Below, piece by piece: positions 35,345 through 40,696 of a stretch of 62,553 nt of DNA; the stretch's first letter is position 1, and every line of letters starts with the position of its first letter. The notes under the pieces were generated by a model. That model had not been told where the DNA came from. It searched no databases and saw nothing but the letters and a program-made list of their open reading frames with translations. The DNA lies in the NCBI GenBank assembly GCA_947649495.1, contig CANSRU010000014.1:1-62553 (forward strand), given 5' to 3'. The DNA is from an uncultured Porphyromonadaceae bacterium (lineage in GTDB: Bacteria; Bacteroidota; Bacteroidia; Bacteroidales; Muribaculaceae). The translations under genes were made by a program, and so were the position numbers.

Positions 35345-35890
35345 ACAACAATTAATTAGTCCAATTAGACTAATTAGACTAATTGGAAAAAACAGCAAAC
35401 AGCAGGGGCGGTGGCTTTCCAGCCACCGCACAAAAGAGAGCAAGAGAGCTCTCCCCCTGCCGTTGGTCGAAGACCAACAAACATGGTTAGGCCCGCTCAA
35501 CCAACCCCGCAGTAGGGACGCGCCACGGCGCGTCAGCCGGCAAACCCGCAAGGCATTCATCGTCGAAGATGATGAACCGAACTCGGCCATAGGGGCGGTG
35601 GCTTTCCAGCCGCCGCAAAAAAGAGGGCAAGAGAGCCCTCTCCCTGCCGTTGGTCGAAGACCAACAAACATGGTTAGACCCGCTCAACCAACCCCGCAGT
35701 AGGGACGCGCCACGGCGCGTCAGCCGGCAAACCCGCAAGGCATTCATCGTCGACGATGATGAACTACTTGCCACAGGGGCGGTGGCTTTCCAGCCGCCGC
35801 ACAAAAGAGAGCAAGAGAGCCCTCCCCAACAAACTAACAACAAACAATTAGACTAATTTGCCTAATTGGACCAATCAAACCAATAACTAA
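35345..35890. repeat. Tandem ~185-bp REP-like palindrome array
   Basis: Three units start at 35404, 35591 and 35775 (periods 187 and 184 nt; the third is partial, ending near 35826). Each full unit strings together hairpins: GCGGTGGCT/AGCCACCGC, GAGAGC/GCTCTC, TTGGTC/GACCAA, GACGCGCC/GGCGCGTC and TCATC/GATGA. The array is bracketed by similar AATTAGACTAATT...CTAATTGG sequences at 35354-35387 and 35850-35872. It fills the whole 561-nt gap before the GH18-like gene, and no gene was found in it. Open frames crossing it are by-products of the repeats. Confidence 0.85.
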
Positions 35891-35902: not shown

Positions 35903-37531
35903 ATGAGACATAAAATAATCCCCCTCATCCTCGCAGCTTTCGCATCGATAGCCCTCCCCGCCTGCGAAGACGACACCACGATTATAAACCCCGACCCCGG
36001 GCACCCATCAACCGCCCCCGACGCTTCGGCCACCTCCAAGGCTATCCTCTCCAGCGCCTACTGCCCCGACACCGACATAGTGCTGTTTAACATCGGCAAT
36101 CCCGAAAACGAGAACCTCGCCCCCGACGATCTCGGTCGTAGCGACCAACTTACCCTCATACTTCCCGCACCGCTTGATCATGACCTGACACTCCGCGTCG
36201 GCATGGAACCTAACTATGCAAACAATGTGCAAATAAACGGTGGTAGTATCGCATGGGGGACATGTAATAAATTCCAGAAAGAACACTATTACCGTACAGT
36301 TTTTTCTGATGAAAAGAATCAAGGATTGATCAACCACTTCTCTATTAATGGCGATTCCGAAGCTATAATCACCATTAAAGCAGGCCAAACTCAGTCTAAC
36401 CCGCTTCAGGTTGATTTCACTCGCTCAGATTTAAGATGGGGTTTAAGCTATCTGTTCCCAATCCAGGCTACCGACATAGCTACCGGCGAATTATACGCCG
36501 AGACATTTTATGTTGTGACCCCAATAGATGAAAATCCGTCAATAATCGGTCAACGGCCTGCGGTGTTTGTTGCCTATATCGATACGGAAGTTATGAACCC
36601 ACTCATTACCGATAAGTTCATATACGAACTTGCCACCGACGATTTCAATACCGGAGATCATAATATAATATACTATGGTCCCTATTTTGAAATTCTCAAT
36701 CTCCGTACGTCCACCATAAAAGAGGTCGCAGGTATGCCAACAATATCTTTGACCGCCGACCTTGAATATGTCCTCAAAAACCGGAATAAGTATCTCGCCC
36801 CCATGCAAAAGAACGGACTGAAGATATGTTTGAGTATTAAGGGTGGAAACACAGGCCTTGGATTTTCAAACATGACCGATGAGCAGATTTCAAAATTCGT
36901 TTCGCGTGCAAAAGTTCTTGTTGACATGTACAGTCTCGACGGCATAAATATTTGGGACGAAAACGCCGGTTACGACATTGACGGTGCAGCTGAGGTCAAT
37001 CCTGAATCATACGCTAAGCTCATAAAGGCACTAAAAACAGCCATGCCCGGAAAGCTGCTCACGCTTGTCGACACCCGCGAGACCACCGAAGCTCTTTGCG
37101 ACCCTGTAGCCGGAATATCCGTAGGCGACTACCTCGACTATGCATGGAGTTCATTGGAAACTTTCTTGCTTCCATACGAACCGGGGAGCAGCACACGTCC
37201 GTTAGCCAACCTTTCTGAGAAAAAATACGGTTCATTGTTTATGCGCGACCCTATGTTAATCCCTGAGGAAATACTAATGGGTTGGGACGAAGATCCTGTT
37301 TTTAGCCAATACATGATGGGATTGAATCAGACTCCACTTACCGGCACGGATGTATTTGTGGTCTACGACATACCATTTATGGACTATGGCAAAGAAGGAG
37401 TATGGGCATTCGGACTCTTATGGGAACCGGTAAAATATCCAACCCCGGAAGACTTTTCAACATTTACCATGGGACAGCTTGATTATCCGTATTACATGCG
37501 CGATTATTACATGTTCAAAAAAGACTGGTAA
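35903..37531 (+). CDS. GH18-like lipoprotein with altered catalytic motif (DUF1735-type N-terminus)
   Basis: A 542-residue lipoprotein (lipobox LPAC, Cys about residue 21). The first 200 residues are a beta-sandwich region like DUF1735. The C-terminal 330 residues resemble the GH18 endo-beta-N-acetylglucosaminidase barrel (FVAYIDTEVMNPL, LKICLSIKGGNTGLGFSNM, LDGINIWDE, PGKLLTLVD). In the DGxDxDxE signature the residues are Asp346, Asn349, Trp351 and Glu353: the proton donor Glu is kept but the two assisting Asp are replaced. Activity is doubtful. DNA from about 36200 to 37000 is visibly more AT-rich than the locus around it. REP-like repeats lie on both sides. Confidence 0.75.
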   Translation: MRHKIIPLILAAFASIALPACEDDTTIINPDPGHPSTAPDASATSKAILSSAYCPDTDIVLFNIGNPENENLAPDDLGRSDQLTLILPAPLDHDLTLRVGMEPNYANNVQINGGSIAWGTCNKFQKEHYYRTVFSDEKNQGLINHFSINGDSEAIITIKAGQTQSNPLQVDFTRSDLRWGLSYLFPIQATDIATGELYAETFYVVTPIDENPSIIGQRPAVFVAYIDTEVMNPLITDKFIYELATDDFNTGDHNIIYYGPYFEILNLRTSTIKEVAGMPTISLTADLEYVLKNRNKYLAPMQKNGLKICLSIKGGNTGLGFSNMTDEQISKFVSRAKVLVDMYSLDGINIWDENAGYDIDGAAEVNPESYAKLIKALKTAMPGKLLTLVDTRETTEALCDPVAGISVGDYLDYAWSSLETFLLPYEPGSSTRPLANLSEKKYGSLFMRDPMLIPEEILMGWDEDPVFSQYMMGLNQTPLTGTDVFVVYDIPFMDYGKEGVWAFGLLWEPVKYPTPEDFSTFTMGQLDYPYYMRDYYMFKKDW

Positions 37532-37583
37532 ACCCCGCCATGGGGATATGCCCATGGCGGCTCCCGGCAGCTCCATCAACCAC

Positions 37584-38047
37584 GCAGTAGGGACGCGCCA
37601 CGGCGCGTCAGCCGAAGCAAACGCCAATCAATCCGGCCCATCCGATTGCTGACGCGATTTATCGCGTCCCTACCGCATCCGATCTCAGGCATTGCCACCC
37701 CGGCAGCTCAACCAACCCACAGTAGGGACGCGCCACGGCGCGTCAGCCGGCAAACCCGCCGCCATCTCTCCCCCCTTGGCGAAAACATGAATATAAACAT
37801 AAGATTGGTTACAACAATAAGGTAAAAAGACATTTACCCAACCCCCGAGGGCGGCGGCGATGCGAATCACCCCGCCCTCCCCCTTTTTCCTTAGGAGCGC
37901 CCGACTTTCCTGCCACCGTTCCCCCTCCCAAAAAACAAGCAACAGGGGCGGTGGCTTTCTTGCCACCGCATAGAGGAGGGCTAGAAAGCCCTCCCTCCTA
38001 ACAATCTCAGCCACAAAAAAAGGAGCGGTGGCTGGAAAGCCACCGCT
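37584..38047. repeat. Scattered REP-like palindromes downstream of the GH18-like gene
   Basis: The 558-nt gap after the GH18-like gene contains the same hairpin types as the array upstream: GACGCGCC/GGCGCGTC at 37592-37609 and 37727-37744, GACGCGAT/ATCGCGTC at 37651-37668 in opposite orientation, GCGGTGGC/GCCACCGC at 37949-37969, AGGGCT/AGCCCT near 37977-37992, and AGCGGTGGCT/AGCCACCGCT at 38024-38047 in opposite orientation. No gene was found. Mixed orientations suggest separate insertions rather than simple duplication. Confidence 0.8.
38015..38047 (-). terminator. REP-like hairpin acting as terminator of the TAC-like operon
   Basis: Read on the minus strand, the 10-bp stem AGCGGTGGCT/AGCCACCGCT is followed by CTCC and seven T, 42 nt after the stop of the last gene of the operon. 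Confidence 0.65.
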
Positions 38048-38089
38048 AAATTATAATGTAACTTATATGCAATAATTTATCCGGATACA

Positions 38090-38533
38090 TCATTCGGCAA
38101 CAGCCGATTCCAGATCTACAACTAAATTTTCCTTGATAAGAGTGGTAAGATTGATGGGAGGGAGAATGAATTGCGTGAACGGGGTATTCTCTGTTTTGCA
38201 ATATAAAATGCCACGTGCAACACCCACGGTCTGATTTGCCAACAAACACAAATCGGATGGCACTACAGTCATTTTATTGTCCTTAATCAATCCGTTCCAG
38301 CTATCAGGGTGAATATCAAATTCACAGGTCTCCTCCAATAGTAATATCTTCTCACCATTATCATTGTCGCCGGACGACTCAAACGTTACACCGAATTCGC
38401 AGGCTATACGCATGGCATTGGATGCGACTTTAAAACCTACGTGAACCGCATAGGATAAATCGCCTTGCGGCATAGTATCAGTAAGTATGGCAAACTGACC
38501 GACACTTATTCTTGCCATTCTGAATTTAATCAT
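38090..38533 (-). CDS. SecB-like chaperone candidate, third gene of a toxin-antitoxin-chaperone module
   Basis: A 147-residue soluble protein. The pattern of strands (RIACEFGVTFES, LLLEETCEFDIHP) and especially the end (TVGVARGILY, then ILPPINLTTLI) follows the SecB fold, where a Tyr/Arg-containing helix is followed by L.L.PVNF..L. Similarity is recognised by eye only. Its ATG overlaps the stop of the HTH gene (ATGA). The order toxin, HTH antitoxin, SecB-like protein is that of TAC modules (as in mycobacterial HigB-HigA-SecB), where the chaperone protects the antitoxin. A secretion-only role or an unrelated fold is possible. Confidence 0.55.
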   Translation of the reverse strand: MIKFRMARISVGQFAILTDTMPQGDLSYAVHVGFKVASNAMRIACEFGVTFESSGDNDNGEKILLLEETCEFDIHPDSWNGLIKDNKMTVVPSDLCLLANQTVGVARGILYCKTENTPFTQFILPPINLTTLIKENLVVDLESAVAE

Positions 38534-38943
38534 GCTATTCTTTTTTGACGGTTCGACATCGGCAACGCCGTTTCGTAGGTTTTCGCAGCAACAAACCGAA
38601 AATTCGACTTAGTACGATAGACCTCTCTGTATTCAACTATACGGGAATATTTAGGTTGTTCAAAACGGTGTTTATCGTCAGAAACAGCCTCTTCTATAGG
38701 TTTGAATTCCATTGAAGGAACCATGTCGAATGCAAGAGCCAATTCAACCAATTTGGATAGTTTATGATCGTAATCACCACTTAGCAACTGCGATACATAA
38801 CCTTTGCTGACGCCAAGATACTTTGCCAATTGTGTCCGGTTCATTTTGTTTTTACTCATAAAATCTTCAGCACACCTGTACAGGTCAAGCTGAATCTTCG
38901 TGGTAATATAACCGGAATTTCTAAATAAATCCTCGCGTTCCAT
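38530..38943 (-). CDS. HTH (XRE family) antitoxin, HigA-like, with C-terminal extension
   Basis: A 137-residue DNA-binding protein. The helix-turn-helix is at about residues 36-60 (RTQLAKYLGVSKGYVSQLLS). After the HTH domain a further ~60 residues (from KHRFEQPKYSRIVEYREVYR) form an extra tail, as expected for a chaperone-addiction region in TAC antitoxins (inference). It starts 15 nt after the toxin frame and overlaps the SecB-like gene by 4 nt. It would repress its own operon. The coding sequence is intact, unlike its partner toxin. Confidence 0.8.
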   Translation of the reverse strand: MEREDLFRNSGYITTKIQLDLYRCAEDFMSKNKMNRTQLAKYLGVSKGYVSQLLSGDYDHKLSKLVELALAFDMVPSMEFKPIEEAVSDDKHRFEQPKYSRIVEYREVYRTKSNFRFVAAKTYETALPMSNRQKRIA

Positions 38944-38958
38944 AATCCTTCTACTTTT

Positions 38959-39333
38959 TTATATTTTGAAATTCTTTAATCTTTCCTTTAATAAATTGAT
39001 GTCATTTTTCTGATTGCCTTTATAGCCTCCGATTACTATATACATGTTCGGTTTCTGCTTGATTACATAGACTCTCAGACTCTATTTTTTGAATTCAAAG
39101 ACATCATTGCGCCCGGCCTCGTGAATCTGTCGAAATTTATCTTTTCTAAGTATGTTATGGTCAGATAAAAACTCCATATATGCAATTATTGAGCCGAACC
39201 ACTTAATGTAGCGGGCGTTATCGGCTATTTCTTCAAGGAAATCGTCAAACTGACATACCCCATCAATATATAGCTTATAATAGGAGTATTGTCCGCCTTT
39301 GGCCAGTTCGAATTCCTTGATGGTATAATCCAT
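38959..39333 (-). pseudogene. HigB/RelE-like toxin gene interrupted by one in-frame TAG
   Basis: The ATG at 39333 opens 83 codons (MDYTIKEFELAKGG..., ending RNDVFEFKK) up to TAG at 39084-39082. The same frame then continues for exactly 40 sense codons (SLRVYVIKQKPNMYIVIGGY, then KGNQKNDINLLKERLKNFKI) to TAA at 38961-38959. The continuation is just what a Gp49/HigB-type toxin C-terminus looks like, including the closing Lys-rich helix. So a single base change truncates a 124-codon gene. The HTH gene starts 15 nt later. Either the toxin is dead, or read-through makes a little full-length protein, or the base is a sequencing error. Confidence 0.75.
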
Positions 39334-39364
39334 TTATTTAAGGTGGGTGGTTCATTTCGCTTTG

Positions 39365-39372
39365 CAAATTTA
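39365..39372 (-). promoter_or_regulatory. -7 box of the TAC-like operon
   Basis: TAAATTTG on the minus strand, 31 nt before the toxin ATG. Confidence 0.55.
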
Positions 39373-39407
39373 ATTGTTTTTCATGCCTAAAACAAATTTT
39401 CAGGCCA

Positions 39408-39433
39408 AAAAGTTTAGCTTTAACTAAACTTTT
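39408..39433. promoter_or_regulatory. Inverted repeat between divergent promoters, possible antitoxin operator
   Basis: AAAAGTTTAG (39408-39417) pairs perfectly with CTAAACTTTT (39424-39433). It lies just upstream of the TAC-like promoter, between it and the divergent glycosyltransferase promoter, a sensible place for HigA-type binding (inference). Confidence 0.4.
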
Positions 39434-39480
39434 CTATAGGCAATCTTAATCTCATGTATTGCCGTTTCGGAACAATGATG

Positions 39481-39488
39481 TACATTTG
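39481..39488 (+). promoter_or_regulatory. -7 box directly before the glycosyltransferase start
   Basis: TACATTTG ends 5 nt before the ATG at 39494, so a transcript from it would be nearly leaderless. Confidence 0.45.
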
Positions 39489-39493
39489 TGGGT

Positions 39494-40696
39494 ATGAAAC
39501 AGCGAGTACTGATAGTCAACAAATTTTACTATCGCCGGGGAGGCGACTGTGTGTGCGCGCTCAATCTCGAGCATCTGTTGCGCGATAATGGCCACGAGGT
39601 GGCGGTTTTTGCAATGAGACATCCCGAAAATCTACCATCGGAATGGGACACATACTGGCCTGACGAGATCAGTTTCAGTGGCGGAGCGAAAGCCAAGCTC
39701 TCGGCCCTGAAACGCACATTGGGTCTTGGCGATGTTGTGGCGAAGTTCAACCGTCTGCTCGATGATTTCCACCCCGACGTAGTGCACCTGCACAACATCC
39801 ACTCCTACCTGTCGCCCATAGTGGCAGCCATAGCCCATAAAAGAGGCATCAGGGTGGTGTGGACCATGCACGACTACAAGCTGATATGCCCCTCCTACTC
39901 ATGCCTGCGCAACGGGAAGGTGTGCGAGTTATGCTACACAGCACCCCGCAATGTGCTCACCACCCGCTGCATGAAAGGCTCGCTGGCAGCAAGCGCCATA
40001 GCCTACATGGAGGCCCTGCGGTGGAACCGCAGCCGGCTTCAGAGCTACACCGACCGCTTCATAGCCCCGAGCGCGTTCATGGCATCGAAAATGAAGCAGG
40101 GCGGCTTCCCGGAAGAGAAGATAAGCACGCTGTGCAATTTCATTTCGCCCGACCTACTCGATTCGTACAGCGACACCGGAATAAACAACGGCGGGGACTA
40201 CTATTGCTATGTAGGGCGCCTGTCGGAGGAGAAAGGAGTGCGCACGCTCCTTGCTGCCGCCGCCTCCATGCCCTATACCCTCAAGGTGGCAGGAGGAGGG
40301 CCGCTTGCCGATGAGCTGAAAGCGCAATATTCCGACTACCGCAACATAGAGTTTCTCGGGATGCTCGGCGGCGAAGAGGTGCGCGACCTTCTTAGCCACG
40401 CCCGCTTCTCCATCCTTACCTCAGAATGGTACGAAAACAATCCCATGGGCATAATCGAATCACTTTGCGCCGGATGTCCGGTGGCGGGAGCGGAGATAGG
40501 CGGCATACCCGAGCTTATCACACCTGAATGCGGACGCACGTTCCGTAGCGGCGACAAGGAGTCGCTGCAGCAGACAGTGGCTGAAATGTGGGACACCGAA
40601 TTTGACCGTCAGGCCATCAAGACCAAAGCTCTTGCAGACTTCGCTCCCGAGACCCACTACCGTAAGCTGATGGAAATCTACTCGCCTGAGCGCTGA
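39494..40696 (+). CDS. Glycosyltransferase family 4
   Basis: A 400-residue GT-B fold enzyme, predicted to add a sugar from a nucleotide donor to a surface polysaccharide or glycoprotein glycan. The N-terminal domain shows NKFYYRRGGDCVCALNLEHL and HLHNIHSYLSP; the middle has a Cys-rich stretch (LICPSYSCLRNGKVCELCY) typical of one GT4 subgroup. The donor domain has YVGRLSEEKGVRTLL, then NPMGIIESLCAGCPVAGAEI with the EX7E-type motif and GGIPELI. A GTG two codons upstream is less likely than this ATG. It stands alone, and its 3' end overlaps the convergent small membrane gene by 19 nt. Confidence 0.92.
   Translation: MKQRVLIVNKFYYRRGGDCVCALNLEHLLRDNGHEVAVFAMRHPENLPSEWDTYWPDEISFSGGAKAKLSALKRTLGLGDVVAKFNRLLDDFHPDVVHLHNIHSYLSPIVAAIAHKRGIRVVWTMHDYKLICPSYSCLRNGKVCELCYTAPRNVLTTRCMKGSLAASAIAYMEALRWNRSRLQSYTDRFIAPSAFMASKMKQGGFPEEKISTLCNFISPDLLDSYSDTGINNGGDYYCYVGRLSEEKGVRTLLAAAASMPYTLKVAGGGPLADELKAQYSDYRNIEFLGMLGGEEVRDLLSHARFSILTSEWYENNPMGIIESLCAGCPVAGAEIGGIPELITPECGRTFRSGDKESLQQTVAEMWDTEFDRQAIKTKALADFAPETHYRKLMEIYSPER

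What the first reader, a model, noticed from the sequence alone, without database searches (positions are those of the whole stretch)
38959..39333. HigB-like toxin gene with a single in-frame TAG inside an otherwise intact TAC-like operon
The minus-strand frame reads 83 codons, one TAG (39084-39082), then 40 more codons to a TAA placed 15 nt before the antitoxin start. The codons after the TAG give a convincing toxin C-terminus, so one base separates a truncated from a complete 124-codon toxin. The antitoxin and third gene stay open. This could be a recently disarmed toxin kept for its antitoxin, a suppressible stop that limits toxin dose, or a base-call error.
Basis: partly seen in the sequence, partly recalled or inferred. 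Interest (0 to 1): 0.8.

Follow-up and report, generated by a model that had tools for sequence, protein, structure and literature searches.

The report
Broken toxin beside intact antitoxin, chaperone
A Bacteroidales-type bacterium carries a three-gene self-poisoning module (toxin, antitoxin, helper chaperone) whose toxin gene is cut short by one stop codon, most likely an ordinary recent loss of the toxin of a kind seen repeatedly in related modules.

Summary
In detail: on the minus strand 83 codons, a TAG (39084-39082), 40 codons and a TAA lie 15 nt before an open antitoxin, followed by an open third gene. The 40-codon piece is a real toxin C-terminus: 62-72% identical to the five nearest of 13 relatives, against 37-45% for the N-piece. 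The third gene models as SecB; a relative's intact toxin models closest to HigB toxins. So this is a HigB-HigA-SecB (TAC) operon with a conserved upstream palindrome. Of 42 antitoxin loci, window included, 31 have an open toxin frame and 11 a broken or missing toxin; only the window has one nonsense codon in an otherwise full-length toxin. In the order draw, all 12 stop-free strong toxin matches sit beside an antitoxin match. No CUA-anticodon tRNA was found, in an incomplete search. Best reading: a recent loss-of-function mutation with antitoxin, chaperone and operator retained. A base-call error cannot be excluded without reads; readthrough has no positive support. A known kind of decay; modest interest.

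The parts
39412..39429 (-). Conserved palindrome GTTTAG-N6-CTAAAC upstream of the toxin, likely operator of the antitoxin (function inferred)
   Evidence: 30 of 42 loci (window included) carry it with at most 1 mismatch of 12 within 700 nt upstream of the antitoxin, 0.08 loci expected in resampled sequence
39365..39396 (-). Promoter-like TTTG (39396-39393), 20 nt, TAAATTTG (39372-39365), resembling the Bacteroides TTTG/TAnnTTTG promoter (consensus recalled, position read by eye)
   Evidence: sequence; consensus from memory, not tested
39085..39333 (-). N-terminal 83 codons of the HigB-like toxin
39082..39084 (-). In-frame TAG inside the toxin
   Evidence: the tool marks '1 TAG'
38959..39081 (-). 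C-terminal 40 codons of the toxin (last two strands and last helix by comparison with the modelled relative) plus TAA
38530..38943 (-). Antitoxin, 137 aa, HTH_3 plus C-terminal extension; open
   Evidence: HTH_3 E 2e-6, above Pfam cut-off; relatives
38090..38533 (-). SecB-like chaperone, 147 aa; open
   Evidence: PDC-M64C E 4.7e-5; model pLDDT 90, best Foldseek matches SecB E 3.5e-5 and Rv1957 E 2.0e-4

Best explanation
This is a toxin-antitoxin-chaperone (HigB-HigA-SecB-like) operon of a Bacteroidota family in which the toxin has recently been disarmed by one nonsense mutation. Shown: an open N-piece, TAG, an undecayed C-piece, an open antitoxin and chaperone, a conserved upstream palindrome, open toxin frames in relatives, and repeated loss of the toxin elsewhere in the family. 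Inferred: the 83-residue product lacks the last two strands of the sheet and the last helix, with the invariant Arg, Tyr, Lys, Gln and Asp of the C-part, so it cannot act as an mRNA-cleaving HigB. The antitoxin is still made from its own start, binds the palindrome, represses the operon and is stabilised by the chaperone. What remains is a toxin-less antitoxin-chaperone unit, either simply decaying or useful for neutralising related toxins brought in by mobile elements.
For: Exact anatomy. Pieces match the toxin family separately. C-piece not decayed. SecB fold of gene 3 and HigB-like fold of an intact relative. By alignment the TAG falls between strand 78-83 and strand 86-93 of the L013 model, and R87, Y89, K105, Q108, D111, invariant in 13 toxins, lie after it. 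11 of 42 antitoxin loci (window included) have a broken or absent toxin, 5 of them with a third-gene frame of 140 codons or more (window, L010, L020, L044, L061). Asymmetry in the order draw of 393 genomes: 6 of 18 antitoxin loci lack an open full toxin, whereas all 12 stop-free toxin matches with E <= 2e-34 lie beside an antitoxin match. The palindrome, with at most one mismatch, is kept in 6 of the 11 loci: window, L010, L020, L039, L044, L061.
Against: No reads, no second strain and no closely related copy, so fixation of the TAG is not shown. An undecayed C-piece is equally expected from a base-call error or from readthrough. The window's C-piece is better conserved relative to its N-piece than in pairs of close relatives (difference 0.21-0.28 for its five nearest relatives, versus -0.08 to 0.15 over 15 pairs of six relatives); this is not explained. 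Retention of antitoxin and chaperone by selection is not tested, and in 5 of the 11 loci the palindrome is not found at one mismatch or fewer (L024, L030, L033, L043, L066). Some broken relatives (frameshifts in L020, L061) lie in draft assemblies and could themselves be errors.
Confidence: 0.8

Rival explanations
1. The TAG is a base-call or consensus error in a draft assembly and the toxin is intact in the organism.
For: Draft genome of 34 contigs. A single base decides. The C-piece shows no decay. 31 of 42 loci have open toxin frames.
Against: Substitution errors in assembled genomes are rare per gene (general knowledge, no call), while toxin loss in this family is common (11 of 42, window included). 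Antitoxin and third gene are open.
Confidence: 0.12
2. A leaky or suppressible stop makes a small, regulated dose of full-length toxin (programmed readthrough, or suppression by a tRNA brought in by a TAG-recoding phage).
For: The frame stays open and conserved after the stop; palindrome, antitoxin and chaperone are kept.
Against: The 31 loci with open toxin frames lack the stop and the other 10 broken loci are deletions, frameshifts, shortened or missing toxins. No CUA-anticodon tRNA among 33 tRNA matches or the 6 anticodon-pattern matches, though the 33 lack Lys, Asn, Val and Ile tRNAs, so the list is incomplete. TAG ends 4 of 48 long open frames in the window (stop-to-stop frames of at least 250 codons, not all of them genes).
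Confidence: 0.05
3. The 83-residue product is itself a functional protein (for example a non-toxic antitoxin partner or co-repressor), and the C-terminal piece is dispensable.
For: Three other loci (L010, L039, L044) keep an N-terminal remnant of the toxin and the palindrome.
Against: The C-piece in the window has not decayed; remnants differ in length; deletions that keep promoter and antitoxin would leave such remnants anyway; L033 keeps the C-part instead.
Confidence: 0.03

Closest known systems
HigBAC of E. coli C496 (TAC; HigB activated by lambda major tail protein; from passages of PMC11980606)
   Same: Three genes toxin-antitoxin-SecB-like chaperone, HigB-type toxin
   Different: Toxin interrupted by TAG here; phage sensing not tested; no sequence comparison with that operon was made
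TAC of Mycobacterium tuberculosis (HigB1-HigA1-Rv1957; passages of PMC9098466 and PMC5105189)
   Same: Gene order; fold of the toxin relative (7nbu rank 3, E 5.8e-3) and of the chaperone (5mtw, E 2.0e-4); antitoxin with a C-terminal extension
   Different: Not among the sequence matches up to E 1 in the PDB searches with the toxin and chaperone profiles; toxin broken here
CmdTAC and MqsRAC anti-phage TAC systems (passages of PMC9519451)
   Same: SecB-like third gene
   Different: Other toxins by description; no comparison run
Orphan antitoxins of Klebsiella (passages of PMC7192599: 2253 occurrences in 105 of 233 antitoxin groups; of these only 8%, 171, had no nearby frame over 50 aa that could be a toxin)
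   Same: Antitoxin kept without a working toxin
   Different: Here the toxin is caught with one nonsense codon and the chaperone is kept too
PADLOC candidate PDC-M64
   Same: Third gene matches PDC-M64C, E 4.7e-5; 1 of 4 relatives' toxins (L013) matches a model labelled PDC-M64B, E 5.7e-6
   Different: Only a database label; no paper in the library holds the name

Membership tests
Toxin-antitoxin-chaperone (HigBAC-type TAC) locus | HigB/RelE-superfamily toxin gene | tested here: met
   Both pieces match the relatives' profile; the model of relative L013 best matches HigB structures, E 3.7e-3 to 5.8e-3, prob 1.00, TM (query) 0.48-0.54 for the first three, none at E <= 0.001; Pfam Gp49 only below cut-off, in 2 of 4 relatives
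Toxin-antitoxin-chaperone (HigBAC-type TAC) locus | Xre/HTH antitoxin directly downstream | tested here: met
   HTH_3 28.2 bits, cut-off 23
Toxin-antitoxin-chaperone (HigBAC-type TAC) locus | C-terminal chaperone-addiction extension of the antitoxin | tested here: inconclusive
   About 60 residues follow the HTH (HTH_3 match 32-76 of 137); whether they bind the chaperone is not testable here
Toxin-antitoxin-chaperone (HigBAC-type TAC) locus | SecB-like third gene | tested here: met
   Foldseek SecB E 3.5e-5, Rv1957 E 2.0e-4
Toxin-antitoxin-chaperone (HigBAC-type TAC) locus | Toxin reading frame intact | tested here: not met
   TAG at 39084-39082: a broken member, not a working TAC
Toxin-antitoxin-chaperone (HigBAC-type TAC) locus | Toxicity relieved only by antitoxin plus chaperone | not testable with these tools
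   needs a bench assay
Programmed stop-codon readthrough | Stop conserved at the same place in relatives | tested here: not met
   0 of the 41 other loci have an in-frame nonsense codon at that place in an otherwise full-length toxin
Programmed stop-codon readthrough | A decoding tRNA for the stop | tested here: inconclusive
   No CUA anticodon in 33 tRNA matches or 6 pattern matches, but the tRNA list lacks some isoacceptors

The most novel reading that the evidence does not exclude
The TAG is a tripwire. The toxin is silent under the standard code but becomes full length when a phage that reads TAG as an amino acid brings its own suppressor tRNA (such phages of Bacteroidales are recalled, not looked up), so the interrupted toxin would act as an infection-triggered defence that the retained antitoxin and chaperone keep safe. 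Only this single locus shows it, so it rests on non-exclusion alone.
Probability: 0.02. Interest if true: 0.9.

Novelty: new member of a known kind. Interest (0 to 1): 0.3.

Why it matters
It gives an early snapshot of how a three-part toxin module comes apart: the toxin goes first while antitoxin, chaperone and operator stay. The family around it (Bacteroidota HigB-HigA-SecB operons, most with a shared GTTTAG-N6-CTAAAC palindrome) is poorly covered by the public profiles searched here and offers intact and broken members for testing whether antitoxin-chaperone remnants protect against incoming toxins. If the stop were read through in a regulated way it would be a new form of toxin control, but nothing here supports that.

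Tried and rejected
TAG-tripwire idea: I looked for other TAG-interrupted toxins in the family and for CUA tRNAs. Of the 11 loci with broken or missing toxins only the window has a single in-frame nonsense codon in an otherwise full-length toxin, and no CUA tRNA was found; rejected as main reading. Mobile-element origin: no antitoxin match in 72,556 plasmid or 50,697 phage records; in viral contigs 18 stretches fitted a peptide pattern but none was a relative. Plain homology by Pfam/NCBIfam was too weak; PDB sequence searches with the toxin and chaperone profiles gave no toxin or SecB match, so folds were used. PADLOC also gave matches that I take as chance: N-piece to DruB, E 8.1e-4, and one relative's toxin (L032) to Cas2_IIIa, E 1.8e-4. 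No Rfam family in 37500-39600. Papers: PDC-M64 terms gave no paper; in the suppressor-tRNA search none of the 12 listed of 415 papers was, by title and start of abstract, about natural toxin genes with internal stops.

How the 42 were counted: antitoxin matches (8 loci; 11 places; 18 places, E <= 1e-12; 14 places, E <= 1e-15), duplicates merged. Dropped: L021 and L025 (contig edge), L026 and L027 (weak antitoxin matches; L027 does have a third-gene match). L004 and L019 carry the same operon as L011, L005 and L029 as L018, L006 as L020, L007 as L023, L008 as L022. 'Open toxin frame' means one stop-free frame matching the profile; start codons were not examined, and the match begins at profile position 28 in L057, 20 in L058 and 9 in L067. 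L043 was counted as broken because its match ends at position 102 of 129; L024, L030 and L066 as lacking a toxin (upstream 520 nt searched).

The empty site in same-genus genomes was not resolved: the neighbouring glycosyltransferase region matches many of the 33 others, but no listed match covers the operon, and apart from repeats the far flank matches only one genome, on another contig.

Full report
Observation. The minus-strand frame is exactly as described: 83 codons from ATG 39333, TAG 39084-39082, 40 codons, TAA 38961-38959, 15 nt, then the antitoxin ATG at 38943. Antitoxin (137 aa) and third gene (147 aa, overlapping the antitoxin end by 4 nt) are open. The window is contig C14 of a 2.45-Mb, 34-contig genome.

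What the genes are. The N-piece has no Pfam match and the C-piece only a sub-threshold RelE/ParE-type match, TIGR02683 at E 0.0085. Relatives with an open toxin frame were found next to antitoxin relatives. A profile of 13 of them matches the two window pieces apart. The predicted structure of one relative's toxin (L013, pLDDT 87) is closest to a Streptococcus pneumoniae toxin-antitoxin module (6af4, 6af3) and third to the M. tuberculosis TAC toxin HigB1 (E 3.7e-3 to 5.8e-3, probability 1.00, query TM 0.48-0.54; no match at E <= 0.001). The antitoxin has an HTH_3 domain above cut-off. The third gene matches the candidate-defence model PDC-M64C, and its own model (pLDDT 90) matches SecB (E 3.5e-5) and the TAC chaperone Rv1957 (E 2.0e-4). 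The operon is therefore read as a HigB-HigA-SecB TAC.

What the stop does. By alignment, the TAG lies between the strand ending at residue 83 and the strand starting at 86 of the L013 model. The piece after it corresponds to the last two strands and the last helix and to five columns invariant in 13 toxins: R87, Y89, K105, Q108, D111; other invariant columns, such as E80, lie before it. In the M. tuberculosis TAC toxin alanine at K58, R68, R77, K95 or K99 inhibited toxicity and the last helix is described as critical (passages of PMC9098466); which of these correspond to the columns named here was not tested. An 83-residue product should be inactive (inference).

Age of the lesion. The C-piece is 62-72% identical to the five nearest of 13 relatives, against 37-45% for the N-piece; for the other eight the figures are 36-47% and 25-39%. 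Nothing after the stop has visibly decayed, so it is recent, erroneous or read through; the data do not separate these.

Family context. Searches gave 42 usable antitoxin loci, window included (compiled; dropped rows in Tried and rejected): 31 with an open toxin frame and 11 without. The 11 are the window (one TAG), L010, L039 and L044 (deletions leaving an N-terminal remnant), L020 and L061 (frameshifts), L033 (N-part lost), L043 (C-part short), and L024, L030, L066 (no toxin found). Of the 30 loci with a third-gene match in a frame of 140 codons or more, 5 have a broken toxin. In the order draw of 393 genomes, 6 of 18 antitoxin loci lack an open full toxin. In the toxin search of the order (393 genomes) there were 20 matches in 18 genomes: 12 stop-free ones with E <= 2e-34, each beside an antitoxin match, the window with its TAG, four fragments that belong to broken loci above, and three weak ones (E 1.2e-7 to 6.8e-6) that were not examined. 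One antitoxin, in L039, itself contains a TAA. This direction of loss is what toxin-antitoxin biology predicts, and unpaired antitoxins are reported as abundant in Klebsiella, though only 8% of those had no possible toxin frame nearby (passages of PMC7192599).

Operator. A palindrome GTTTAG-N6-CTAAAC lies upstream of the toxin (39429-39412). I took the pattern from the window and a relative, then found it with at most one mismatch of 12 in 30 of 42 loci within 700 nt upstream of the antitoxin (19 exact), against 0.08 expected in resampled sequence. It is kept in 6 of the 11 broken loci, including the window, and not found at that threshold in the other five. Binding by the antitoxin is inferred.

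Alternatives. Readthrough: no relative shares the stop; 33 tRNA matches and 6 anticodon-pattern matches give no CUA tRNA, but the tRNA list lacks Lys, Asn, Val and Ile isoacceptors and is therefore incomplete. Error: not excluded, because no reads or second strain are at hand; no DNA match to the operon was listed for the 33 other genomes of the genus, and in the family draw one of the same-genus genomes, G267, had only a weak antitoxin match (E 6.6e-4).

Literature. TAC systems, including HigBAC of E. coli, are known stress or anti-phage modules (passages of PMC11980606, PMC9519451, PMC5105189). I saw passages only of each of the five papers cited by number. Searches for TAC with SecB and HigB (20 of 40 papers listed), TAC in Bacteroidetes (15 of 20 listed), PDC-M64 (none), HigBAC (8 of 74 listed) and toxins in Muribaculaceae/Bacteroidales (8 of 1,051 listed) showed nothing that by title or start of abstract describes this Bacteroidota family; this is not proof that none exists.

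Verdict. A real feature, ordinary in kind: most likely a recently disarmed toxin in a Bacteroidota TAC operon, with base-call error as the main rival.

Noticed in passing
window 35404-35827, 37581-37759 and 37939-38050: Imperfect GC-rich repeat units (30-58 nt families, one of 174 nt) recur here, and stretches of this region match many short places on contigs C1, C2, C15 and C30 of the same genome; one unit lies just downstream of the chaperone gene. Nature unknown.
   Followed up: partly
window 39412-39429 and upstream of relatives: The GTTTAG-N6-CTAAAC palindrome looks like a family-wide operator (30 of 42 loci) and could be used to find further members.
   Followed up: partly
L010, L039, L044: Toxin-core deletions that leave the palindrome and the N-terminal start of the toxin, with the remnant's stop at or within about 35 nt of the antitoxin start.
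   Followed up: partly
L030: Antitoxin relative with no toxin found and only a C-terminal remnant of the chaperone gene downstream.
   Followed up: no
L027: A weak antitoxin relative with a clear SecB-like third-gene match (E 2.4e-36) and a faint toxin-like match upstream: perhaps a second TAC type in the family.
   Followed up: no
window 38962-39333: The window's toxin C-piece is unusually well conserved relative to its N-piece compared with pairs of relatives; unexplained.
   Followed up: no
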